In this document: piece after piece, positions 4,021-15,002 of the stretch
Layout of the letters: the number at the start of each line of letters is the position of its first letter
Position numbering within the stretch: position 1 is the stretch's first letter
Origin: Verrucomicrobiales bacterium
GTDB lineage: Bacteria > Verrucomicrobiota > Verrucomicrobiia > Verrucomicrobiales > DEV007
Direction: 5' to 3'
Assembly: GCA_007123695.1 (NCBI GenBank)
Contig: SLGN01000095.1
Location: forward strand, 1 to 16,271
DNA: 16,271 nt
Made by a program: the position numbers and the translations under genes
Notes under the pieces: model-generated
Databases searched by the model: none
The model's input: the letters and a program-made list of their open reading frames with translations, nothing else
Told to the model about the DNA's origin: nothing

Positions 4021-5430
4021 CTACTGGCCGCCTTCGGGAATGGCGTCGGCGGCGACGGCGGCGCGGTAGAGCGCGCGCGCCCGGAAGAAGTCGGCGAGGG
4101 CCTCGACCTGGATCTGGCGGGCGTCGAAGGTGGCTTTTTCCCGGATCTGCAGGGCGAGGAGGTCGCTCGCCCCCTGCTCGAAGCGCTCGGCCTCGGCTTC
4201 CTCCAATTGGACGGCGAGCTCGACGTTGAGTCCGGTCTGGGTGATCAGGTCGCGTGCCGCCTGGATGGCCGAGGCGGCGTCTCGAACCGAGGCCTCGATC
4301 TGATTTCGGGCGAACTCGTGGTCGAGAAAGAGCTGCTGCAGCTCGGCTTCGGACTGCTCGACGCGTCCCTTCGCCTCGCGCCGCTGCAGGGGCAGACGGA
4401 AGATGATGCCTGCCTGGACTTCGTTCTGCTCGATGTCGCGGGTGGCCCGGGCTGCGGCGGTTCCGGCGTTGGCGGCCTCGACGGCGAGATCGAGATTGGG
4501 CATCATGTTGTTGCGGGCGAGGCGCCGGTCGATGCCGGCCTTTTCCATGAGCAGTTCGATCTGTTTGATTTCGGGCCGCAGCATGGTCGCCTTGGCGAGA
4601 TCGACGTTGAGCTGGGCCTGGGCCGGCGCCTCCAGCGGCGGAAACTGTGGCGGAGCCTGGTCGCGCTCGGCCCGGATGGGCTGGTCGTCGCCGTCGCGGA
4701 GGAAGAGGGGCAGCTCGATGGAGGCGGCCTCTGGTGTCCGGCGGGCCGAGACCACGCCCAGCTCGCGCTGGACGATGAGACGCTGGTTGTCCACCTCTAC
4801 GATAGCGGCCTGGAAGCCGTCCGCGACCATCTCGGCGATGGCGTCGCCGCGTTCCATCGCCACTTCGAGCAACTGTTCGGCGAGTCCGAGGCGGTAGGCC
4901 GCGGCGAGCCAGTTGAAGTAGGCCACCGTCGAGGCCCGGATGAAGTCGATATGCTGCCGCAGGATGAGCGGGTCGGCGAGTTCCTGGTCGATCCGGGCCT
5001 TGAAAAGATCGGCGCGGCGCTTGTCGAAGGCTCCGTCGCGGAGCAGGGGCAGGCGGAATCCGATGATGGCCTGGCCGTCCGGCGGAGTGCGGTTCTTGTC
5101 GTAGGGGGCGAGGTTCTGGCCGCTGGTGCGGTAGCCGCCGTAGACCGAGCCCCCCCATTGCGTCAGCGGCTGCTCGACCAGGGCCAGGGCCGAGGGACTG
5201 TCGTAGAACCCGGCGGGACGGAGATTGCCGTCGATCCCGAGCCGGGTGTCGAAGGACCCGAGCGCCTGGGTGGCGCGCCCGTTCATCATGTCCTGCTGAA
5301 TGAGGGCTGCGAGATAGGGCGGGAAGCGCTCGCGCACCGAGGAAATCACATGCTCCAGCAGCAGGGGGTCGGCGCCGACCGCGGTCGGAACCAGCGCGAC
5401 GACCGCAAGTAGCCGGAGAAAATGCCTCAT
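4021..5430 (-). CDS. TolC-family outer-membrane efflux/secretion channel
   Basis: A 469-residue outer-membrane factor. It begins with a signal peptide (MRHFLRLLAVVALVPTAVGA) and has the two-fold helical layout of TolC-like channels: long Ala/Glu/Gln-rich coiled segments such as LATSVAYFN-like helices in the first half, and AKGRVEQSEAELQQLF and ALADFFRARALYRAAV in the second. SFDTRLGIDGNL and IIFRLPLQRREAKGRVEQ are typical strand-forming and post-strand segments. It would form the outer-membrane end of a tripartite exporter. The start codon lies 2 bases after the stop of the HlyD-family adaptor gene, so the two are tightly coupled in translation. The substrate is unknown; no toxin or peptide gene is visible nearby. 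The family is sure; the specific role is inferred from the operon. Confidence 0.88.
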   Translation of the reverse strand: MRHFLRLLAVVALVPTAVGADPLLLEHVISSVRERFPPYLAALIQQDMMNGRATQALGSFDTRLGIDGNLRPAGFYDSPSALALVEQPLTQWGGSVYGGYRTSGQNLAPYDKNRTPPDGQAIIGFRLPLLRDGAFDKRRADLFKARIDQELADPLILRQHIDFIRASTVAYFNWLAAAYRLGLAEQLLEVAMERGDAIAEMVADGFQAAIVEVDNQRLIVQRELGVVSARRTPEAASIELPLFLRDGDDQPIRAERDQAPPQFPPLEAPAQAQLNVDLAKATMLRPEIKQIELLMEKAGIDRRLARNNMMPNLDLAVEAANAGTAAARATRDIEQNEVQAGIIFRLPLQRREAKGRVEQSEAELQQLFLDHEFARNQIEASVRDAASAIQAARDLITQTGLNVELAVQLEEAEAERFEQGASDLLALQIREKATFDARQIQVEALADFFRARALYRAAVAADAIPEGGQ

Positions 5431-5432
5431 TC

Positions 5433-6770
5433 TTACTTCTGCCGTTCCGCCGGGAGACCGCCCTTGCCGTCCTTGCCGGGTTCGTCCATCGAGACGACCG
5501 GCGGGAATCCGTTGAGCTGCCGCCAGATCTCCTTCCACAGGGGAACTTGCTCGAGCAGCACCCACCCTTTCGCACGCACCCCCTGGCGCAGGAAGCGGTT
5601 GCCCGGCCATTCCTCGACGCGCACGGTGCCGCGCCGCTCGATCACATCGGGCTTCGGAGCGACGACGATGCGGAAACGACCGTAGCCGTCGTCGGTCGGA
5701 TCGATGAAGACGACCTCGCCGCCGAAGGTGCCGATCGCGACGCTGGGCCAGCCCATGAACTGGATCGCGGGCCAGCCTTCGAACTGGAGTCTCGCCAGGC
5801 TCCCCGGCACGACCGTTCCGTCCTCGAGTTCGTGCCGCGCCCGGATCAGGGGCATGTCCATGCCCTTGACCCACATCTCTACGAAGCGGCTTTCCGTCTC
5901 GGGAATGATGATGCAGATTGGCGAACCGGGCCGCAGGAAGGTGCCGTCGGTCACTGCCACGCTGAAGACGATTCCGTCGCGGGGCGATTCGATGGTCTGC
6001 TGCTGCGCCGAGTTGATCTGGCTCTCCAGCATGTTGATCTCGCGGTCGGCGGCGGCAAGTTCGGCCTGGGCGCTGCCGCGGCTCGCGCGCGTACTGGAGA
6101 TGGTGGCATCGGCCTCCTCGGTGGTGCGTTCGAGAGTGGCCTTCGCCGACTGAAGGCTCGCGACGGAGCTGTCGATGGCGAGCTTCGCCAGCTCGTAGTC
6201 GCGCTGAGAGACCAGCCCCGACTTGAGCAGCCGCTGCACGCGCTCGTATTGGATGCGGTTGGTCTCCAGCGCGAACTCTTCGGCGATGACGCGCTGCCGG
6301 GCCGAATCGATGGCTTGGGTCTTGGCCCGCTCGAGCTGCTCGATCTGGGCGCCGAGATCCTCGATGCGCTGGTTCGCCGCCGCCCGCCGGGCTACTGCGG
6401 CGTCGCGCTGCAGCTGCAAGTTGCGGGCGAGTTCGGGGTCGTTGTCCTGGATCTCCAAGAGGATCTCGCCCTTCCGCACGCGTTGGTTCTCCACGATGTG
6501 GAGCTTGCGCACCCGGCCCGCCACAGGCGCCTCGACATTGATCCTGCGGTCAAGGGGGTCGAAGGCGATGACCCGCCCGGTGCCGCCGATGAACTGCTGC
6601 CAGGGCAGGAAGGCGATCGAGGGAATGAGCAGCCCGAAAAAGGTCGCGAGGAAGCGTGCCAGAATCCGCGGGATGCGGGTGGCCCCGGTCATGGCGAGGG
6701 CGGGAAGACGGCCCTTGAGGATGTCCTGCTTTTTCAGCGGCGGGGCGATGGCTTCGCTGGCGTGACTCAT
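5433..6770 (-). CDS. HlyD/membrane-fusion-protein family periplasmic adaptor
   Basis: A 445-residue adaptor with a cytoplasmic N-terminus, one membrane anchor (about 36-57, ILARFLATFFGLLIPSIAFL) and a periplasmic part. The first lipoyl half is NVEAPVAGRVRKLHIVENQR (78-97) with VRKGEILLEIQD following. A long coiled-coil hairpin rich in Ala, Arg, Glu and Gln spans about 113-270. The second lipoyl half is QQQTIESPRDGIVFSVAVTD, followed by beta-barrel segments (VPGSLARLQFEGWP and others) and a Lys/Gly-rich tail. This is the standard layout of type I secretion or efflux adaptors that bridge an inner-membrane ABC protein and TolC. It starts 13 bases after the ABC gene and ends 2 bases before the TolC gene, so all three form one operon. 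The transported molecule is unknown. Confidence 0.9.
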   Translation of the reverse strand: MSHASEAIAPPLKKQDILKGRLPALAMTGATRIPRILARFLATFFGLLIPSIAFLPWQQFIGGTGRVIAFDPLDRRINVEAPVAGRVRKLHIVENQRVRKGEILLEIQDNDPELARNLQLQRDAAVARRAAANQRIEDLGAQIEQLERAKTQAIDSARQRVIAEEFALETNRIQYERVQRLLKSGLVSQRDYELAKLAIDSSVASLQSAKATLERTTEEADATISSTRASRGSAQAELAAADREINMLESQINSAQQQTIESPRDGIVFSVAVTDGTFLRPGSPICIIIPETESRFVEMWVKGMDMPLIRARHELEDGTVVPGSLARLQFEGWPAIQFMGWPSVAIGTFGGEVVFIDPTDDGYGRFRIVVAPKPDVIERRGTVRVEEWPGNRFLRQGVRAKGWVLLEQVPLWKEIWRQLNGFPPVVSMDEPGKDGKGGLPAERQK

Positions 6771-6783
6771 GTCGGTGGAGGGT

Positions 6784-9030
6784 TCAGCCGTGGTGGTGGC
6801 CGGATTTTCCTTGGGTGGGCGGCTTCAGCGAGATGGAGCCTTGCATCAGCTGCACCACTGCCTCGTCGCGCGTCGAGACGATCGCGGTCCAGCTTTGGCC
6901 AGGGTCGGTGACGAGGGCGGCGAGCTCCTCGCGGGAAGGCTTGTCGAGCCCGTCGAGGACTTCGTCGACGAGGAGAAGGCTCGGCGATGCGAGAAGGGCG
7001 CGTGCGAAGAGCAGGCGGATGCGCTCCCGGCTCGAGAGGGGCAGTCCGCCCGCGAGCAGATTCGTGTGGAGGCCCTCGGGCAAGTCGAGGATGCGGCGGA
7101 GGATGCCGGTCCGCTCCAGGGCCCCGTGCAGCTCCGCCACCGATGTCTCGACGCGGCCTAGCCTCAGGTTCTCGGCGATGGTGCCGCTGACGATGTCGGT
7201 GCTGCGCAGCAGCATGGCCCGCTCGCGCAAGGATTCCAGACGCCAACCGCGGATGTCGTGCCCGTCGAGGAAGATCGCGCCCGATGTCGGTGCCCGGAGT
7301 CCGTGGAGCAGGTCGAGCATCGAGCTGATGCCGCTGCCCTGCGAGCCGAAGAGGGCGACGCGATCCCCTGCCTCGATCCGGAAGTTCAGCCCGTCGAAGA
7401 GATGGGGCCCGTCGTGGTACGAAAAGCCGAGATCGATGGCCTCGATCTCCATGCCGCGTCCCGTGTCCGGCGGAGGCAGGTCGCCGTTTTCGCGCTCCGT
7501 GTCGAGGTCGATGAGGTGTCCGATCTTGTCCACCGAGGCCATCGTGTCGTACCAGGACTCAAACTGCTTGCCCAGCTTGGCGATCGATCCCACGATGGTG
7601 CTGACGATGATCTCGGCGGCCACGAGCTGGCCGAGGGTGAGTTCCTGCTGGATCACGAGCCAGCCGCCCGCCGTGAGGAGTACGGCGCTCGCGACCGCCT
7701 GGACCGCCAGCAGGGCACCGACTTGGCGGATGAGGATGCGGAAATGCGCACGCCGCGCGCGCAGATAGGCGCGGGCCAGTTCGTCGGCACGCGCGCACGA
7801 GAGGTCGTAGCCGCCCGGCCCCTTGAAGAGGCGGGGGCAGCGGGCCAGCTCCTCGAGCCAGGCGATCACGTGATACTTGCAGTGGCTCTCTCCGATGCTG
7901 GTGCCGATGGCGCCGCGGCCGAGGACGAGGATGATGAAGGCCAGCGCCATCAGCAACAGGATGCTGAAGGTCAGGAGGAAAGGGTGGTAGAAGGCGAGAA
8001 CGGTCAGCCCGATGAAGGTGTTGAGCACGAGGTTCACCCCGGTGAGGAGGATCAGCGCCGTGCTCTTCTGCATCGTCACCACGTCGAGGAAGCGGTTGAC
8101 CAGCTCGGGAGCGTGGACTCCGTCGATGGCCCGGGCATCGACCCGGGGCAGGCGGTAGGCGAGGTCCGAAGTCAGCCGCACGAAGAGGCGGCGCTGAATC
8201 ACCTCGGCCATGTAGGTTTGCAGCGTGGTGAAGACGGCGCCGAGAGCGAGGCAGATGAAAAGCACGATCCCCAGCACCAGCAGCGCCTGCTGGAAGGGGC
8301 CGCTCGCCGTGCCGAAGGCGATGTTGCTGACAAGCGCGTTGATCGCGAGCGGCAGGGCGAGATAGAGCAGTCCCGTGATCATGCTGTAGACCACGATCAC
8401 GGCGATGTCCCAGGTCTCGGGGCGCATCAGGGCGATGAAGCGCCGGATCGGATGCATCCCGTGTCCATTTCCGTGTCCATTTCCGTGCCCATGCCCATGC
8501 CCGTGCCCATTTCCGCCTCCATGTCCGTGCCCGCCGCCTCCGTGCTGCGCTGCGGCACCGAAGTGATGCGCGTCGCCGAGAACGTCCATCGGCTTCGCCG
8601 GCACGACCAGACCCAGATCGACGGGTTCCTTGGCGTTGCGCGCGCCGAGAAGACAGGCCAAATCGTGCCGACCCATCGTGTCGGTCTCGAAAGGGCTTTC
8701 GGGATAGCTGACCCGCGCCAGGAAGTAGCCGTGCCGCCGGATCACGATCCATTTTCCCTCCGAAGTGGTCGCGAGGATGGGCTGGTTCGAATCGGCGACC
8801 CAGACGGCATCGGCGACGGACATCCGCACCGGGGTAATGCGCAGGCCGCAGGCGTTTGCCGACGCCGCGAGCCTCTCGAGGGGCTCGGCCCCGGCCCGGG
8901 AGTAGGTGTTGATCGCCTGCCGGGCGTTGCTCGGATCGACGTCGACGGAAAGCAACTGGCCCACGTGCAGAATGGCTTCGGCATCCTGCTCGATCGATCT
9001 CGGGGCTCTGGTCGGTTGGGCCTCGGGCAT
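6784..9030 (-). CDS. ABC exporter subunit with C39-like domain, His/Gly-rich linker and degenerate nucleotide-binding domain
   Basis: A 748-residue protein of type I secretion layout. Residues about 12-135 resemble a C39-peptidase-like domain without an evident catalytic Cys-His pair. A linker rich in Gly and His (155-193, 12 His) follows, then about six membrane segments (203-480) and a nucleotide-binding domain (527-735). That domain is degenerate. Walker A reads GSQGSGIS (562-569) with Ile568 where Lys is expected. The Q-loop region [11 protein letters not shown] (607-617) has no Gln. The signature reads LSSRE (665-669) instead of LSGGQ, and the H-loop reads STRD (719-722) with no His. Walker B (SLLLVDE, 684-690), including Glu690, and the D-loop are kept. 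The protein ends in GHHHG. The start at 9030 gives a normal N-terminus; a longer upstream reading is rejected. It heads the operon with HlyD and TolC partners. Confidence 0.88.
8452..8568 (-). repeat. Low-complexity hexanucleotide-like repeat coding the His/Gly linker
   Basis: This stretch encodes residues 155-193 of the ABC protein. It consists of alternating Gly-His and Gly-Asn codons, seen on the plus strand as repeated CATTTCCGTGTC-like and CATGCC units. The unit variation suggests slippage-driven growth of the linker. Copy number may differ between strains. Confidence 0.75.
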
Positions 9031-9100: not shown

Positions 9101-9155
9101 CCCCGCGCCGAAAGACTTGCCAAGCGCAATACCGGGTCGATGCTGCCCCCGCGAC

Positions 9156-11021
9156 ATGACCGACGACCGCCTGACCGCGCCCGCCGAGCGACGCCAGCTC
9201 CTCGTCGCCGCGCTGTCCCTGCTCGCGATCCTGGCGCACCTCGCCCTGCGCTACGGAGCGGGGCTGCGCGGACCCGCCTCCGATGCGCCCCTCTGGGCGG
9301 CCTACGTCTTCGGCGGCGCGCCCCTGCTCTGGGGATTGCTCGGAAATCTCTGGCGCCGGGAGTTCGGTTCGGATCTGCTCGCGGGAGTCTCCATCGTCAC
9401 CTCGGTCCTGCTCGGCGAATACCTCGCCGGCGTCATCGTTGTGCTGATGCTCTCGGGGGGAGCGGCGCTCGAGGCCTACGCCGTCGGCGGAGCCTCTTCT
9501 GCGCTCAAGGCCCTCTCCGCCCGGATGCCTTCCGTGGCGCACCGCCGCAGCGGCGCGTCCTTCGAGGACATCGCTCTCGACGAGGTCGCGGTCGGCGATC
9601 TGCTCGAGATCCTGCCGCACGAAATCTGTCCGGTCGATGGCACCGTGGTCGGGGGGCGCGGGACGATGGACGAATCCTACCTCACTGGGGAGCCCTACCT
9701 CGTTTCGAAGACCCCGGGCGCCACCGTGATTTCCGGAGCCCTCAACGGCGAGAAGCCGCTCACGATCCGGGCGGACCGCCTCGCCGTCGATTCCCGCTAC
9801 GCGAAGATCATGGAAGTGATGCGCGATTCCGATGAGCGCCGCCCCCGGATGCGCCGTCTCGCCGACCGCCTCGGCGCCTGGTACACGCCCTTCGCCGTCG
9901 CCGTCGCCCTGCTCGCCTGGGCTGCGAGCGGGGATCCGGTGCGCTTCCTCGCCGTGCTCGTCGTGGCCACTCCCTGCCCCCTCCTCATCGCGATCCCGGT
10001 CACGATCATCGGCTCGATCTCGCTCGCGGCAAAGCGGTCCATCGTCGTGCGCGATCCCACCATCCTCGAGACCATCGACACCTGCCGCTCCGTCATCTTC
10101 GACAAAACCGGCACCCTCACCTACGGTCGGCCCGCGCTCGTCGACCGGGACACGGCCCCCGGTTTCCATCCCGACGAAGTCCTGCGGCTCGTCGCCGGCG
10201 CCGAGCTCTACTCGAAGCATCCGCTCTCCGCCGCCGTCCTCGAGGCCGCACGGGCGCTCGGCGGAGAGCCGCCGCCCGCCGACGAGATAGCCGAGCGTCC
10301 CGGCGAGGGTCTCGCGGCCAAAATTGCGGGGCACGACCTCCTCGTCACGAGCCGCCGTCGGCTCGCCCGGCTCCTGCCCGAGGAAGCGGCCCTGCTGCCC
10401 GAAACCACCGCCGGGCTCGAGTGCGTCGTCGTCCTCGACGGACGCTATGCGGCCACCTTCCGCTTCCGCGACGCCCCCCGGACCGAGGGAATCGAGTTCA
10501 TCCGCCACCTCGGCGGAAAGCACCGCATCGGACGCGCCATGCTGCTGTCGGGAGACCGCCAGTCCGAAGCAGACTACCTCGCCGCGCGGGTCGGCATCGA
10601 GACGGTGCACGCCGGCAAGAGCCCGGAAGAAAAGCTCGCCATCGTCCGCGAGGAGACCGCCGCCCACCGCACCCTCTACGTGGGCGACGGGATCAACGAC
10701 GCCCCCGCCCTCGCCGCCGCCACCGTCGGGATCGCCTTCGGGCACGACAGCGACGTCACCGCCAAGGCCGCCGGGGCCGTCGTGATGGACAGCTCGCTGC
10801 GGAGGCTCGACGAGCTCATCCACATCGGCCGCCGCATGCGCCGCATCGCCCTGCAGAGCGCCGTCGGCGGGATGGTGCTGAGCGTGGTCGGAATGGGCTT
10901 TGCCGCTGCGGGCCACCTGCCCCCCGTCGCCGGAGCCATCGCGCAGGAGTTCATCGACATTCTCGCCGTGCTCAACGCCCTGCGTGTCGCCATCCCTCCG
11001 AAGACCCTCACCGACTATTGA
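9156..11021 (+). CDS. P1B-type metal-transporting P-type ATPase (TPCP motif, P1B-5-like)
   Basis: A 621-residue P-type ATPase. It has the actuator motif TGE (177-179), phosphorylation motif DKTGT (Asp316), the P1B marker HP (SKHPL, His355), and the hinge motif GDGIND (510-515). The transmembrane metal motif is TPCP (272-275) instead of the usual CPC, and the last membrane segment carries QEFID (597-601). From memory, TPCP with QExxD marks the P1B-5 group, with Ni/Fe transport reported for Sinorhizobium Nia; that link should be checked. There is no N-terminal heavy-metal domain and no C-terminal hemerythrin domain, the protein ending 20 residues after QEFID. About eight membrane segments are visible, as in P1B pumps. 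The ATG at 9156 gives a compact N-terminus. It is divergent from the ABC operon. The metal is inferred, not shown. Confidence 0.9.
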
Positions 11022-11075: not shown

Positions 11076-12227
11076 TCAGGGCCGTACCCAATCGGGCACG
11101 GAGCCGTCGCCGGTGCCTTCGCCCGCGAGGATCCAAGCGAGGTTGAAGCGGGCGATGGAGGACGCCGTTTTTTCCCGACCTCCCTCGTAGTGGAGGTAGA
11201 TCCATCCCTCGCCCGCGGTGCCGGGCCGCCCGGCGACGAGCGCGGAGTAGGCGAAGCGACCCTCCTCGACGAGACGCTTCACCGGCCAGGTCCGGCCTCC
11301 GTCGAAGCTGGCCCACACCGTGCCGCGCTCGCGGTCGGAGCCCTCGGTGTCGATGTTGCTGAAGACGAGGATGTCCCGCCCCTCGACGGGCAGACGGTCG
11401 AGACCGCCCATGAGTCCGTAGGACCGGTCCTGGGTGCCGTCGGGCAGGATTTCGACGACGGCGAATCCGCTCCAACTCCGCCCCCCGTCGTCGCTGAAGG
11501 CATGGCGGCGGCGGGTGTTCTGCGGGCGCTCCTGCCAGTGGACGCGCGAATTGTAGTAGATCCGCCCATCGGCGAGTTCCGCAAGGGCGGCCTCGCCGGT
11601 GCCGTTTTCGGGAAAGGGCTCGCTCGTCTGCCAGGTGCGGCCGCCGTCGTCGCTGTAGATGGCGTTGGTGTAGTGGTTGGGCCATTCCTCGCGCGAGTTC
11701 TTGGTGCCGTAGTAGCGCGTCGGCCGCAGCAGCCTCCCGGCATGGGGACCGCGCAGCAGGGTCACGCCCTTTTCGTTCATGTGCATCGAGGGCAGGTGCC
11801 CATGGGAATCCGGCGCGATCTCGGTGCCTTCGTCGGGCGCCCACGAGAGCCCCTCGTCGCGGCTGCGGTAGAGGGTCAACGGGGCCGGCGGATGCGCTTC
11901 CTCGACGAAGACGAGAAGGTCGCCGCTGCGCTCGTCGACGGTGGTCCCGCCTCCGTGGAAGCCGGGATCGGCGACGACGATCTCGGGGCCCCAACTGCGG
12001 CCTCCGTCTTCGCTGCGGCGGACCCGGACCCTCTTGTTGCCGAAGGTGGCGACGAGGGCGCCGCCCTTGGTCGCGACGATGTTGGGGAAGCGCTCCGATT
12101 CGAAGAGCGGCTGGACCTCCAGCGATGGCTCGCCGAGATGGGGGGCGAGAGGACCGTCGTAGACAAGGTCCCCGGCGGCGGGGGCCGCGCAAGCGAGGGC
12201 GAGAAGGAGCAGGGAGGATCGGATCAT
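11076..12227 (-). CDS. Secreted sialidase-like BNR-repeat protein (second of tandem pair)
   Basis: A 383-residue exported protein with a signal peptide (MIRSSLLLLALACAAPAAG) and a six-bladed propeller of sialidase type. Five Asp boxes are visible: RSEDGGRSW (71-79), RSRDEGLSW (121-129), YSDDGGRTW (191-199), FSDDGGRSW (244-252) and SFDGGRTW (307-314). GEAALAELADGRIYYNSR (211-228) supplies the Glu and Arg expected in the active site, and FAYSALV the Tyr region. The usual (F/Y)RIP N-terminal motif is replaced by RFPN (46-49), so substrate binding may differ from a classical exo-alpha-sialidase (GH33). It ends like its upstream paralogue (ARFNLAWI). It is 87 bases downstream of that gene and convergent with the metal ATPase. 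Sialidase fold is secure; exact glycosidase activity is not. Confidence 0.85.
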   Translation of the reverse strand: MIRSSLLLLALACAAPAAGDLVYDGPLAPHLGEPSLEVQPLFESERFPNIVATKGGALVATFGNKRVRVRRSEDGGRSWGPEIVVADPGFHGGGTTVDERSGDLLVFVEEAHPPAPLTLYRSRDEGLSWAPDEGTEIAPDSHGHLPSMHMNEKGVTLLRGPHAGRLLRPTRYYGTKNSREEWPNHYTNAIYSDDGGRTWQTSEPFPENGTGEAALAELADGRIYYNSRVHWQERPQNTRRRHAFSDDGGRSWSGFAVVEILPDGTQDRSYGLMGGLDRLPVEGRDILVFSNIDTEGSDRERGTVWASFDGGRTWPVKRLVEEGRFAYSALVAGRPGTAGEGWIYLHYEGGREKTASSIARFNLAWILAGEGTGDGSVPDWVRP

Positions 12228-12314: not shown

Positions 12315-13523
12315 TCAGCGGTCCGCCGACTCGATCCAAGCGAGGTCGAAGCGGGCGCAGGAGATGGATTCGCCGTCCTCGTAGAGACAGAGCACGGTGC
12401 CGTCGGGCAGCACGGCGAGGTCGCTGTAGGCGCTGGGCCCGGGCTCGAGCACCTTGTTCACCGGCCAGGTTTCGCCGTCGTCGCGGCTGAGCTTGATGCT
12501 GAGGTTGCGCCGTTTCCCGCGACCGCCGGGGATTTCGTTTCCGTCCCCGTCGAGGGCGACAGTGTCGGGATTGGAGAAGATCAGGGTTCCGGGGCTCGAG
12601 GGATGGGCGACGATCCCGGCCATGCAGACCGGCTCGCGCAGCTCGGGATGGAAGCGGGGGCGGCTCCATCCGGTGGCACCGTCGGCGCTGACGGTGACGA
12701 TCTTGCGGTTGGCCTTGGAAACGCTGCGGGTCACGAGGAGGACTCCGCCGTCGGAACGTTCGGCGACCATCGTTTCGTTGGGCGAGTTGAATTCGCCCTC
12801 GTTGGGCACGGCGATGTCCCCGGCCTGCCAGGTGCGGCCGCGGTCGTCGCTGTAGAGGGTGCCGGCGGCGGCGGGCCCATGGTCGCCGACGCCGCCGTAG
12901 GCGAGCCAGATCGGGACGACGAGGCGCCCGCTCCGCATCTGGACGCCGTGCCCGGGACCCGTGGCGATGACTTTCCAATCGTAGCGCTCGCGGAAGGGCT
13001 CGAAGGCGGCGGTGATTTCGACCGGCTCGCTCCAGGTCAGGCCCTCGTCGTCGCTGCGCATCGAGAAGCAGCGGGCGTAGTTCACGCAGTAGAGAAACTC
13101 GACGGCGCCGCCGCGCTCTACGATGGCGACAGGGTTGTTCACCGTCTGCTCGCGGGCGCCCTCTTCGTCGCGCTTGCGCGGATTGCCCTCGATGCGGGGG
13201 CCGTGGTGGGCGATGTGCCGGGCCGGCTCCCAGGTGCGGCCTCCGTCGAGGGAGCGGCGCAGGTGGATTTCGATTTCGCCCCAATCCTTGCGGTCCTTCC
13301 GTCGCGCCTCGCAGTAGGCGAGCACGGTGCCTGCGGGGGTCACGACGATGCCGGGGATGCGGTAGTGGGCGACCCCTCCCATGCCGGGCGGGAAGACTTC
13401 GCTCGTTTCGAAGAGCGGTTCCGCCGCACCAGAGCCTGGCAGGGCGAACAGGGCGGCGGCGAAAAGGGAGAGGAGGACACAGGCCCGGTGGCGCGGGCGG
13501 CTTCGGCGAATGGCGGCAGTCAT
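12315..13523 (-). CDS. Secreted exo-alpha-sialidase (GH33-type, first of tandem pair)
   Basis: A 402-residue exported protein. A signal peptide (about 1-34, Arg-rich start, ending near GSGAA) is followed by the sialidase motif YRIP (54-57, Arg55 being the first residue of the Arg triad). Asp boxes are RSLDGGRTW (90-98), RSDDEGLTW (156-164), YSDDRGRTW (224-232) and LSRDDGETW (345-353), with a degenerate one at VSADGATGW. The NET...SDGGVLLVTR segment (249-266) provides the catalytic-type Glu250 and Arg266, and SAYSDL with LYEDG (364-384) the Tyr-Glu nucleophile pair. Such enzymes release terminal sialic acid from glycans. A candidate promoter lies just upstream, and the paralogue at 11076 follows, so both are probably co-expressed. 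No sialic acid catabolic genes are in the window. An alternative is a related BNR glycosidase. Confidence 0.88.
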   Translation of the reverse strand: MTAAIRRSRPRHRACVLLSLFAAALFALPGSGAAEPLFETSEVFPPGMGGVAHYRIPGIVVTPAGTVLAYCEARRKDRKDWGEIEIHLRRSLDGGRTWEPARHIAHHGPRIEGNPRKRDEEGAREQTVNNPVAIVERGGAVEFLYCVNYARCFSMRSDDEGLTWSEPVEITAAFEPFRERYDWKVIATGPGHGVQMRSGRLVVPIWLAYGGVGDHGPAAAGTLYSDDRGRTWQAGDIAVPNEGEFNSPNETMVAERSDGGVLLVTRSVSKANRKIVTVSADGATGWSRPRFHPELREPVCMAGIVAHPSSPGTLIFSNPDTVALDGDGNEIPGGRGKRRNLSIKLSRDDGETWPVNKVLEPGPSAYSDLAVLPDGTVLCLYEDGESISCARFDLAWIESADR

Positions 13524-13544
13524 GGTCGGGGGAGTGTTTTCGGA

Positions 13545-13573
13545 AGAATAGAGCGCAGCGTCGGCCGGGTCCA
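13545..13573 (-). promoter_or_regulatory. Candidate sigma70-type promoter for the sialidase pair
   Basis: On the minus strand TGGACC (13568-13573) and TATTCT (13545-13550) are spaced by 17 bases, giving a start near 13538 and a leader of about 15 bases. The match is moderate and assigned by eye. Confidence 0.35.
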
Positions 13574-13590
13574 GCCTTTCGGCAGGAACG

Positions 13591-13619
13591 CCCTTCGAAG
13601 GGATTTTCCGGGAAATCCC
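13591..13619. promoter_or_regulatory. Two overlapping palindromes, possible operator
   Basis: CCCTTCGAAGGG (13591-13602) is a perfect 12-bp palindrome. It shares its last three bases with GGGATTTTCCGGGAAATCCC (13600-13619), a 20-bp palindrome with one mismatched pair. They sit in the 141-base gap between the divergent sialidase and DUF3365 genes, upstream of the candidate sialidase promoter. A regulator-binding site is plausible but unproven. Confidence 0.4.
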
Positions 13620-13664
13620 GCTTTGGGCGAAAGAATCCTTGAACTCCCTCGTCCAAACCCTTCG

Positions 13665-14282
13665 ATGACAACGCCATTCTTCCGCCTCCGGATCGCCGCC
13701 CCGCTCGTTGCGGCCGCCCTCGCCCTGCTGCCGCTGGCCTCCTGCGAAAGGACGCCCGACCTCGGGGCCGCGCCCCCCTCCGATGGCGGAGCAGCTCCCG
13801 ACGACGCGGCCCTCGCCGAGATCGGCGGCACCGTCTCCCAAGCCCTCATGGACAGCCTCGGCACGCAACTGAAGGCCGCGCTCGAAGCCGGGGGCCCCGT
13901 CGCCGCAGTGACCCTTTGCCAAGGCGTTGCCATGCCCCTGACCGAAGCCGCCGGCCAGGACCACGAAGGCGTGTCCGTGCGGCGCACCACCCTGCGGCCG
14001 CGCAATCCCGCCAACGAGCCCGACGACACCGACCGCGCCGTGCTCGAGGCGATGGTCGCCTCCCAACCGCCCGTGGCCGAGATCCGGCGCGAGGAGGGCG
14101 CGGCCCGCTACTACCGCCCCCTCATCGTGCAGGAACTTTGCTTGAAATGCCACGGCGACCCCGCAGGCTTCCCCGAAGAACTCCGCGAGACCCTCGCGCA
14201 GCTCTATCCCGACGATGCCGCGACCGGCTACTCGCTCGGCGAACTCCGCGGCGCCATCCGCGTCGACATTCCCGTGCCCTGA
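13665..14282 (+). CDS. DUF3365 (Tll0287-like) haem-binding lipoprotein
   Basis: A 205-residue protein with a lipoprotein signal: hydrophobic N-terminus and lipobox LASC with Cys27. A Pro/Gly/Ala linker precedes a DUF3365 domain. VRRTTLRPRNPANEPD (105-120) is a family hallmark, and CLKCH (159-163) is a CxxCH c-type haem attachment motif followed by GDP. YPDDAATGYSLGELRGAIRV (181-200) matches the family C-terminus. Proteins of this family are thought to be haem-dependent sensors or electron carriers, often fused to signalling domains; here the domain stands alone as a lipoprotein. It would be anchored to a membrane facing the periplasm. The ATG at 13665 gives the signal sequence. It is followed after 27 bases by the methyltransferase gene on the same strand, forming a likely operon. 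Confidence 0.85.
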   Translation: MTTPFFRLRIAAPLVAAALALLPLASCERTPDLGAAPPSDGGAAPDDAALAEIGGTVSQALMDSLGTQLKAALEAGGPVAAVTLCQGVAMPLTEAAGQDHEGVSVRRTTLRPRNPANEPDDTDRAVLEAMVASQPPVAEIRREEGAARYYRPLIVQELCLKCHGDPAGFPEELRETLAQLYPDDAATGYSLGELRGAIRVDIPVP

Positions 14283-14309
14283 TCTGCGTCCCCGCTCACC
14301 CACCATCCG

Positions 14310-15002
14310 ATGAATCCCGCCAGCTCCGCCCGCCTTGCCCTTGCCGTCCTTCTTTCCTTCGTCCTCACTCTGCCCGGGACCGCCCAGGACGAGAGCGTCA
14401 ACCCCGGCATCAACGACAGCTTCCAGGACCCCAAGCCGACCGAGTATGTCGAGCGCTTCGAAAAGGAGGGCCGGGAGGTCTACGACAACCGCGAACTCAT
14501 CGTGGAAAAGCTCGGCCTCGAGCCCGGCATGGCGGTGGCCGACGTCGGCGCCGGCACCGGGCTCTTCACCCGGCTCATCGCCGCTCGGGTCGGGCCTTCC
14601 GGCAGGGTCTACGCCGTCGACATCGCCAAAGCCTTCGTCGACCACACCGTGATGTCGAGCCATGCCCGCGGCCTGAAAAACGTCGAGGGCGTCGTCTGCG
14701 CGCCCGACGACGTCAAGCTGCCGCCCGGCTCGGTCGATCTCGTCTTTCTCTGCGACACCTACCACCACTTCGCGACTCCCTACCGCACCATGGCCTCGAT
14801 CGCCAAAGCCCTGAAGCCGGGCGGCCGCGTCGCCATGATCGACTTCGAACGCATCGAGGGAAAAAGCTCGGATTGGATCCTCGACCACGTCCGCGCGGGC
14901 AAAGAGGTCTTCCGCGAGGAAATCGAGGCCTCCGGCTTCGAATTCGTCGAAGAACTCGATCTCTTCGAGGAGAACTATTTCCTCGTTTTCCGCAAACGGT
15001 AA
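14310..15002 (+). CDS. Class I SAM-dependent methyltransferase with a signal peptide
   Basis: A 230-residue protein. Residues 1-25 (Arg-containing start, hydrophobic core, ending GTAQ) look like a cleavable signal peptide. The rest is a class I methyltransferase fold: motif I VADVGAGTGLFT (76-87), an acidic residue after the second strand (AVDI, Asp104), the FLCDTYHHF segment (147-155) and LKPGGRVAMIDF (168-179). SAM is cytoplasmic, so export of such an enzyme is puzzling. Similar exported methyltransferase-like proteins are known from genome annotations, but I know of no proven substrate. It is coupled to the DUF3365 gene 27 bases upstream and converges on the gene ending at 15010, with only 7 bases between. 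An alternative is that the N-terminus is an uncleaved membrane anchor. Confidence 0.85.
   Translation: MNPASSARLALAVLLSFVLTLPGTAQDESVNPGINDSFQDPKPTEYVERFEKEGREVYDNRELIVEKLGLEPGMAVADVGAGTGLFTRLIAARVGPSGRVYAVDIAKAFVDHTVMSSHARGLKNVEGVVCAPDDVKLPPGSVDLVFLCDTYHHFATPYRTMASIAKALKPGGRVAMIDFERIEGKSSDWILDHVRAGKEVFREEIEASGFEFVEELDLFEENYFLVFRKR

What the first reader, a model, noticed from the sequence alone, without database searches (positions are those of the whole stretch)
6784..9030. Type I secretion-type ABC subunit whose ATPase site has lost several catalytic residues together
Walker A Lys is Ile568, the Q-loop has no Gln, the LSGGQ signature is LSSRE, and the H-loop His is absent (STRD). Yet Walker B Asp-Glu, the membrane domain and the operon with intact HlyD and TolC partners are kept. 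Losing four motifs while keeping an open frame suggests a selected non-hydrolysing role, or pairing with a second active ABC half coded elsewhere. A dead subunit as the only ABC in an export operon would be novel in mechanism.
Basis: partly seen in the sequence, partly recalled or inferred. Interest (0 to 1): 0.7.

Follow-up and report, generated by a model that had tools for sequence, protein, structure and literature searches.

The report
Widespread ABC exporter without ATPase motifs
A family of bacterial export-pump subunits that resemble ATP-driven ABC transporters has lost the residues needed to burn ATP, yet selection keeps it together with its two usual export partners, so it may run on some other energy source.

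Summary
The window gene (6784-9030, minus strand, 748 aa) encodes an ABC exporter subunit with Walker A Lys->Ile568, Q-loop Gln->Arg609, signature LSSRE and H-loop His->Arg721, beside HlyD and outer-membrane-channel genes. It is not an error or recent decay. None of the 120 top-listed proteins (the window's own plus 119 relatives) keeps the Walker A Lys, Q-loop Gln, second signature Gly or H-loop His, nor does any of 21 loci of its order. A larger HlyB-related family, in Planctomycetota, Acidobacteria, Myxococcota and Proteobacteria by source names, erodes further: the proteobacterial members lack P-loop and Walker B. Only 5 of 361 proteins keep six catalytic residues. HlyD accompanies the gene in 44 of 44 loci, the channel in 43. 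No second ABC gene lies in those stretches, and ten genomes searched hold no second full-length relative. The membrane domain is more conserved than the ATPase domain, the reverse of an intact control. Best reading: a non-hydrolysing subunit working without an ABC partner; energy source unknown, perhaps an ion gradient. No biochemistry exists.

The parts
6784..9030 (-). ABC exporter subunit with degenerate ATPase site (748 aa, ATG at 9030)
   Evidence: model pLDDT 86.2, pTM 0.86
8599..8994 (-). N-terminal cytosolic domain (residues 13-144); C39-like only by its position and by eye
   Evidence: confident in the model; no Pfam match to this part that is a C39 family at E<=1; filled over 60% in 119 of 120 proteins of set 1, 83 of 121 of set 2, 0 of 120 of the proteobacterial set
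8455..8568 (-). His-rich linker (residues 155-192)
   Evidence: mean 16.7% His in the linker against 1.9% in the rest over the 120 proteins of set 1; 93 of 120 have 4 or more His
7510..8451 (-). Transmembrane domain (residues 194-507)
   Evidence: Pfam ABC_membrane; helices in the model; TMD identity 61.3% against NBD 49.6% in 21 same-order loci
7612..7614 (-). Glu473 in the last TM helix (TM6), conserved in 360 of 361 family members
   Evidence: aligns with chain position 331 (Phe) of mouse P-glycoprotein, counted from the alignment printed; inside helix 468-507 of the model
6820..7449 (-). Nucleotide-binding-type domain (residues 528-737), fold kept
7321..7347 (-). Walker [10 protein letters not shown], Lys->Ile568
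   Evidence: Lys in 0 of 120 listed proteins
7204..7206 (-). Q-loop position, Gln->Arg609
   Evidence: Arg in 118 of 120, Cys in 2
7024..7038 (-). Signature LSSRE in place of LSGGQ
   Evidence: second Gly replaced in 120 of 120 (Arg 119, Thr 1)
6961..6966 (-). Walker B Asp689-Glu690, kept
   Evidence: Asp689 in 120 of 120; position 690 Glu 72, Asp 47, Gly 1
6865..6876 (-). H-loop STRD, His->Arg721
   Evidence: Arg in 118 of 120, Ser 1, Gln 1, His 0
5433..6770 (-). HlyD-type periplasmic adaptor (445 aa)
   Evidence: Pfam HlyD_3 and Biotin_lipoyl_2; partner in 44 of 44 loci
4021..5430 (-). OEP/TolC-type outer-membrane channel (469 aa from ATG at 5430)
   Evidence: Pfam OEP; start located; partner in 43 of 44 loci

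Best explanation
The gene encodes the inner-membrane subunit of a three-gene, HlyB-related tripartite exporter (ABC-HlyD-OEP) whose two ATP sites have both become non-catalytic. Shown here: the losses are old, shared and under selection; the NBD fold is kept in the predicted model; the HlyD/OEP cassette is kept; no second ABC gene is in the stretches examined and no second full-length relative was seen in the ten genomes searched. Inferred: it works as a homodimer, does not turn over ATP, and keeps the NBD as a structural or docking part that holds the transmembrane halves together and perhaps receives cargo. Most speculative step: export is driven by an ion gradient through the transmembrane domain (for example via the invariant TM6 Glu473) or is facilitated diffusion through the HlyD/OEP conduit. 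I put loss of hydrolysis at about 0.9, no ABC partner at about 0.75, and ion-gradient drive at about 0.35.
For: Motif losses: all 120 listed proteins, window included, and 21 of 21 loci of the order. Proteobacterial set: Walker A Lys position Gln in 105 of 120 and Lys in 0, Walker B Asp position Asn in 103 of 120, catalytic Glu position Gln in 104 of 120. Retained cassette: HlyD 44 of 44, OEP 43 of 44 loci from three phyla-level groups. Among neighbouring genes only the cassette recurs generally. Inverted conservation: TMD 61.3% / NBD 49.6%, against 47.3% / 64.6% in an intact exporter of the same order. NBD dN/dS 0.05-0.21 in seven pairs. No second ABC hit at E<=1e-4 in 44 loci other than pieces of the same gene. 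In ten genomes, one full match each (583-781 bits) and nothing else above 180 bits at E<=1e-30. A single origin of all Walker A Lys losses is rejected (p-AU 7e-9). [quoted passage not shown]
Against: No ATPase, binding or transport measurement exists. Walker B Asp and, in the window, the catalytic Glu are kept, so nucleotide binding cannot be excluded. In full-length MsbA, deleting the Walker A Lys abolished ethidium efflux in cells although the NBD-less form still transported (PMC4979069 passages), so a disabled NBD can also block an exporter. No cargo or phenotype is known. In the window's own genus group only this genome and one other (a piece near a contig end) of 33 searched had a match at E<=1e-40, so the contig could be transferred or misbinned. 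Equivalence of Glu473 with LmrA Glu314 was not tested beyond both being in TM6, and Glu473 is just as conserved in members with intact motifs.
Confidence: 0.6

Rival explanations
1. The dead subunit pairs in trans with an ordinary ABC half-exporter encoded elsewhere, which supplies the hydrolysis, as in heterodimeric exporters with one degenerate site.
For: Degenerate-site heterodimers are well known (passages of PMC7756269); each of the ten genomes has other ABC hits.
Against: No second ABC gene in the stretches around the cassette (42 of 44 loci have one hit at E<=1e-4; the extra hits of L073 and L075 are pieces of the same broken gene; five stretches have under 4 kb on one side). In ten genomes the next ABC hits have at most 180 bits and begin at model position 231 of 591 or later, mostly NBD. 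Both composite sites of such a dimer would still contain the dead subunit's altered Walker A or altered signature.
Confidence: 0.15
2. Another ATPase, not an ABC protein, drives the conduit, as suggested for the SecA_DEAD loci that carry HlyD/OEP-like genes in planctomycetes and verrucomicrobia.
For: Kamneva et al. 2015 (PMC4452313; abstract and passages) describe HlyD/OEP-type genes beside a secondary SecA_DEAD ATPase and suggest it could be co-opted as the ATPase.
Against: No generally conserved neighbour beyond the cassette in 45 stretches (an about 300-aa family recurs in 5 of them); none of the seven window ORFs scanned with Pfam is a SecA; that paper could not identify an ABC homologue in its loci, so it describes a different locus. 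The relatives' neighbours were not scanned for SecA by name.
Confidence: 0.12
3. The NBD still binds (but does not hydrolyse) ATP or another nucleotide and acts as a sensor or gate of a channel-like conduit, somewhat as the degenerate site of CFTR or SUR does.
For: In set 1 Gly565, Gly567 and Walker B Asp689 are 120 of 120; of 21 loci outside the window's clade 15 keep the Walker A Lys although none keeps the catalytic Glu or the His.
Against: The proteobacterial clade has lost the P-loop and Walker B and still keeps the cassette, so nucleotide binding is not needed across the family.
Confidence: 0.3
4. Pseudogene, sequencing error or misassembly.
For: Draft genome of 759 contigs, 79.8% complete; a few relatives have broken frames (G379 and G403).
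Against: The same kinds of loss in all 120 listed proteins and 21 of 21 loci from separate genomes; NBD dN/dS well under 1.
Confidence: 0.02

Closest known systems
HlyB / PCAT-type ABC exporters of type I secretion (PDB 7sgr, 8dck; PCAT1)
   Same: Match over TMD and NBD in one stretch (HlyB 209.7 bits, profile 48-586; P-glycoproteins score more in total but through NBD-centred pieces); one chain with TMD and NBD; operon with HlyD and OEP partners.
   Different: Catalytic motifs lost; far below NCBIfam cut-offs (best family NHLM_micro_ABC2 162 against 709.4; type_I_sec_LssB 157.5 against 693.1; HlyB 116 against 725.55); no cargo gene recognised.
Heterodimeric exporters with one degenerate site (TM287/288, TmrAB, TAP)
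   Different: Those have a second, canonical site in the complex (PMC7756269 and PMC8277102 passages); no partner found here.
LmrA-MD and MsbA-MD, exporters truncated by experiment to the membrane domain
   Same: An ABC exporter membrane domain can transport with an ion gradient and without NBDs (passages).
   Different: Those are laboratory truncations of ATPases; here evolution disabled the site and kept the domain. Ion coupling is untested here.
SecA_DEAD-linked HlyD/OEP loci of Planctomycetes and Verrucomicrobia (Kamneva et al. 2015)
   Same: Type I-like envelope parts without a working ABC ATPase, in overlapping phyla.
   Different: No ABC homologue was identified in those loci, which carry a SecA_DEAD protein; here the ABC-fold protein is present and no SecA was seen among the window ORFs scanned.

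Membership tests
Type I secretion ABC exporter (HlyB/LssB type) | One chain with exporter TMD plus NBD | tested here: met
   Pfam ABC_membrane and ABC_tran; model and fold match over residues 190-738
Type I secretion ABC exporter (HlyB/LssB type) | Operon with HlyD adaptor and TolC/OEP channel | tested here: met
   Window; HlyD 44 of 44, OEP 43 of 44 loci
Type I secretion ABC exporter (HlyB/LssB type) | Catalytically competent ATP site (Walker A Lys, Q-loop, LSGGQ, H-loop) | tested here: not met
   Sequence motifs; activity itself not testable here
Type I secretion ABC exporter (HlyB/LssB type) | NCBIfam curated score | tested here: not met
   LssB 157.5 of 693.1 bits; HlyB 116 of 725.55
Type I secretion ABC exporter (HlyB/LssB type) | C39 or C39-like N-terminal domain (present in a subset) | tested here: inconclusive
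   No C39 family among Pfam matches at E<=1 for ten family proteins; the order of helices and strands in the model looks compatible from recall only; the domain was not folded or searched alone
Type I secretion ABC exporter (HlyB/LssB type) | Secreted protein cargo | not testable with these tools
   No cargo-like neighbour conserved with the cassette
Heterodimeric exporter with one degenerate site | Partner ABC subunit with a canonical site encoded nearby | tested here: not met
   No second ABC gene at E<=1e-4 in the stretches of 44 loci (mostly about 6 kb each side, five stretches cut short)
Heterodimeric exporter with one degenerate site | Dedicated paralogous partner elsewhere in the genome | tested here: inconclusive
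   None in ten genomes (583-781 bits for the cassette gene, all others <=180); pairing with an unrelated exporter is not excluded
SecA_DEAD-linked type I-like locus | SecA_DEAD ATPase gene in the locus | tested here: not met
   Seven window ORFs scanned with Pfam, none SecA; relatives' neighbours only checked for recurrence
Secondary-active (ion-driven) transporter | Transport driven by an ion gradient | not testable with these tools
   Only circumstantial: invariant TM6 Glu473

The most novel reading that the evidence does not exclude
A naturally evolved, widespread family of ABC-fold exporters that no longer use ATP at all: the transmembrane domain, docked to HlyD and an outer-membrane channel, exports its cargo with an ion gradient, making it a secondary-active tripartite pump derived from an ABC ATPase, with the nucleotide-binding domain reduced to scaffold in steps that can be read across the family.
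Probability: 0.35. Interest if true: 0.9.

Novelty: new variant of a known kind. Interest (0 to 1): 0.75.

Why it matters
ABC transporters are defined by ATP binding and hydrolysis. Here is a family in at least five phyla by source names, including the cultivable genera Alteromonas and Sphingomonas, with a graded series from intact to wholly eroded ATP sites, a strongly conserved membrane domain and, wherever the surroundings of a non-intact member were read, the same export cassette. That makes the disputed question of whether an ABC membrane domain can be powered by an ion gradient directly testable in natural proteins. It would also correct source names that call many of these proteins ATP-binding proteins.

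Tried and rejected
Sequencing error or recent decay: rejected by family-wide losses. ABC partner nearby: none (at E<=1e-30, repeated at E<=1e-4). Paralogous partner: none in ten genomes. SecA motor: the Kamneva et al. loci were considered because they are type I-like and from overlapping phyla, but no ABC homologue was identified there. A single shared origin for all Walker A losses: rejected. Separate origins for the window clade and the proteobacterial clade cannot be claimed: holding them as one clade was not rejected (p-AU 0.525). A second structure model (proteobacterial member, alignment A6) and a plain Foldseek PDB search were never accepted by the busy machine, so retention of the NBD fold in the most eroded clade rests on sequence alignment only; the VIA-align list showed PCAT1 but no HlyB row among the 50 entries printed. 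Literature searches listed nothing that, from titles and abstracts, describes a family-wide non-catalytic exporter of this kind; most subscription papers are not in that library. The Q-loop column of the outgroup in the tree is misaligned (shown as lost); the proper control is, where 31 of 31 rows have Gln.

Rows dropped or special: L075 (split frame) and L088 (partial) were left out of the and 108 motif tables; L073, whose gene has stops, was represented by its longest open piece; L087 is a neighbouring stretch without the gene; rows with under 250 filled TMD columns were left out of the tree. Loci L189-L200 were fetched and not analysed, and the surroundings of the five intact proteins were not available, so whether they have the cassette is unknown. 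The three database lists are each the best 120 of longer hit lists (2478, 2100 and 1502 hits), so they are chosen by similarity to their queries and are not a random sample; P0001 is the window's own protein, P0121 and P0122 are the same protein, and P0242 is the query L138 itself.

Full report

THE MOTIFS. Walker A is GSQGSGISS (Ile568 for Lys), the Q-loop position is Arg609, the signature is LSSRE, the H-loop position is Arg721; Walker B Asp689-Glu690 is kept. Over the 120 listed proteins (set 1: the window's own plus 119 relatives), counts are: position 568 Cys 44, Ser 42, Thr 25, Ala 6, Ile 2, Val 1, Lys 0; position 609 Arg 118, Cys 2; position 668 (second signature Gly) Arg 119, Thr 1; position 721 Arg 118, Ser 1, Gln 1; Asp689 120 of 120; position 690 Glu 72, Asp 47, Gly 1. 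In 21 loci of the window's order from separate genomes (window included; the split L075 and partial L088 left out) Lys, Gln, second Gly and His are 0 of 21 each; His is replaced by Arg in 21 of 21 and Gln by Arg in 18 and Asn in 3; the signature position is more mixed (Arg 10, Asn 5, Ser 3, Ala 2, Thr 1), so the Arg there is not universal; position 690 is Glu in 14, Asp in 4, Lys in 3. An ordinary exporter of the same order (L009 protein and 30 fetched relatives) keeps all motifs in 31 of 31 rows.

A LARGER FAMILY. A second search from a more distant member of the same phylum (L043) listed 120 of 2100 hits, some named by their sources as Planctomycetota, Acidobacteria, Bryobacterales, Sandaracinaceae, Minicystis and Lentisphaeraceae. 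A third, from proteobacterial members, listed 120 of 1502 hits, with names from Alteromonas, Pseudoalteromonas, Paraglaciecola, Microbulbifer and Sphingomonas (and one MAG named Cyclobacteriaceae). Of six catalytic residues (K, Q, second G, D, E, H), set 1 keeps 1 or 2 in all 120; set 2 (121 rows, one protein twice) keeps 0 to 6, with all six in 5 (P0190, P0208, P0211, P0223, P0224) and K, D, E, H in 12; the proteobacterial set keeps 0 in 97 and 1 in 23 of 120. In the proteobacterial set the Walker A Lys position is Gln in 105, the Walker B Asp position Asn in 103 and the catalytic Glu position Gln in 104 of 120. Of 21 loci outside the window's clade, 15 keep the Walker A Lys, 0 keep the Q-loop Gln, the catalytic Glu or the His. 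Matches at the stated thresholds: 50 of 189 genomes of the window's order (E<=1e-60), 6 of 288 drawn across the phylum (1e-80), 23 of 246 (1e-80) and 42 of 392 (1e-100, intact member P0190 as query) genomes of the phylum of G445 (the genome of a record titled Planctomycetaceae; the two draws overlap), and 5 of 299 genomes of the phylum of G446 (record titled Sedimenticola, same five). The query genomes are counted in these. The twelve best loci found with the intact P0190 were themselves not intact (catalytic Glu 0 of 12, His 0 of 12, Gln 0 of 12; Lys 11 of 12), and a HlyD hit lies in all 12.

SELECTION. Mean pairwise identity in same-order loci is TMD 61.3% and NBD 49.6% (21 loci), against TMD 47.3% and NBD 64.6% in the intact control (30 loci). 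The three database sets show the same inversion: 70.9/55.4, 57.4/40.5 and 66.2/45.7 (sampled pairs; set 2 contains the few intact members). Nei-Gojobori dN/dS of the NBD is 0.05-0.21 in seven pairs and of the TMD 0.01-0.23; an eighth pair was saturated, dS exceeds 1 in some, two pairs share a member and none includes the window. The sequence is therefore maintained, but constraint has moved from the ATPase to the membrane domain. Across 361 proteins, Glu473 in TM6 is kept in 360 and His349, Lys385 and Gln468 in 361.

CONTEXT. In 44 loci with the gene (45 stretches examined; L087 is a neighbouring piece), a HlyD gene is present in 44 and an OEP gene in 43; the one without ends inside the HlyD gene at a contig end. 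In two loci (L132, L133) the OEP gene lies upstream instead of downstream. Beyond the cassette no neighbour recurs generally; an about 300-aa family occurs in five stretches. At E<=1e-4 no second ABC gene is in these stretches; the extra hits in L073 and L075 are pieces of the same broken gene, and five stretches have under 4 kb on one side. In ten genomes the cassette protein is the only full-length match (583-781 bits); all other hits at E<=1e-30 score at most 180 bits and start at model position 231 or later of 591. The window's own genome has 33 ABC hits in all, the next best at 103 bits.

HISTORY. On a 103-row TMD tree the window clade is one fully supported group (22 rows, SH-aLRT 100) placed next to members with intact K, D, E and H (P0224, P0191, P0228; the joining fork has only 83). 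The root branch is long and many inner forks are weak. One origin for every Walker A Lys loss is rejected (p-AU 7.2e-9; the group was named by the trait, not in advance), but one origin for the window clade plus the proteobacterial clade is not (p-AU 0.525). Erosion therefore happened more than once; how often is open.

HOW IT MAY WORK. Shown: retained fold (model of the window protein), retained partners, selected non-canonical site, no ABC partner by two tests. Inferred: homodimer, no ATP turnover. Speculative: energy source. Laboratory truncations of LmrA and MsbA that lack the NBD still conduct ions or transport drugs with ion gradients, and LmrA Glu314 in TM6 is needed for proton-coupled transport; on the other side, full-length MsbA without the Walker A Lys lost its efflux in cells (passages read). 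The invariant TM6 Glu473 here is a candidate, although intact members have it too. Alternatives are a nucleotide-gated or passive conduit, a partner in trans, or another ATPase.

WHAT IS KNOWN. Read in passages only: reviews on degenerate sites in exporters (PMC7756269) and on tripartite and type I systems (PMC8277102), which discuss degenerate sites in heterodimers such as TmrAB and TM287/288. Kamneva et al. (PMC4452313; abstract and passages) report type I-like loci with SecA_DEAD in which they could not identify an ABC homologue. My searches listed no description of this family.

Noticed in passing
8455-8568: The linker between the N-terminal domain and the TMD is extremely His-rich, and this is shared by the clade (93 of 120 listed proteins have 4 or more His). 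A metal-sensing or metal-handling role is possible; a heavy-metal P-type ATPase gene lies divergently next door (9117-11021).
   Followed up: partly
525-2543: A TatC protein fused to a long His/Asp-rich stretch and a C-terminal helix-hairpin-helix (HHH_3) domain, an odd combination for a Tat translocase subunit.
   Followed up: no
11076-12227 and the minus-strand ORF 12315-14888: Two adjacent minus-strand ORFs with repeated S-x-D-x-G-x-T-W (Asp-box) motifs, read by eye; they look like paired sialidase/BNR-type proteins.
   Followed up: no
6784-9030 within genome G000: Of 33 genomes of the window's genus group searched (own included), only this one and a fragment in G027 have a match at E<=1e-40, while the gene is common in another family of the order: horizontal transfer or a misbinned contig.
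   Followed up: no
L075 (G379), L073 (G403): Relatives with a frame break or internal stops in the ABC gene; HlyD and OEP genes are still present beside them.
   Followed up: no
L137:5848-8643: One proteobacterial member has an ORF of 931 aa, about 360 aa longer than its relatives; the extra part was not examined.
   Followed up: no
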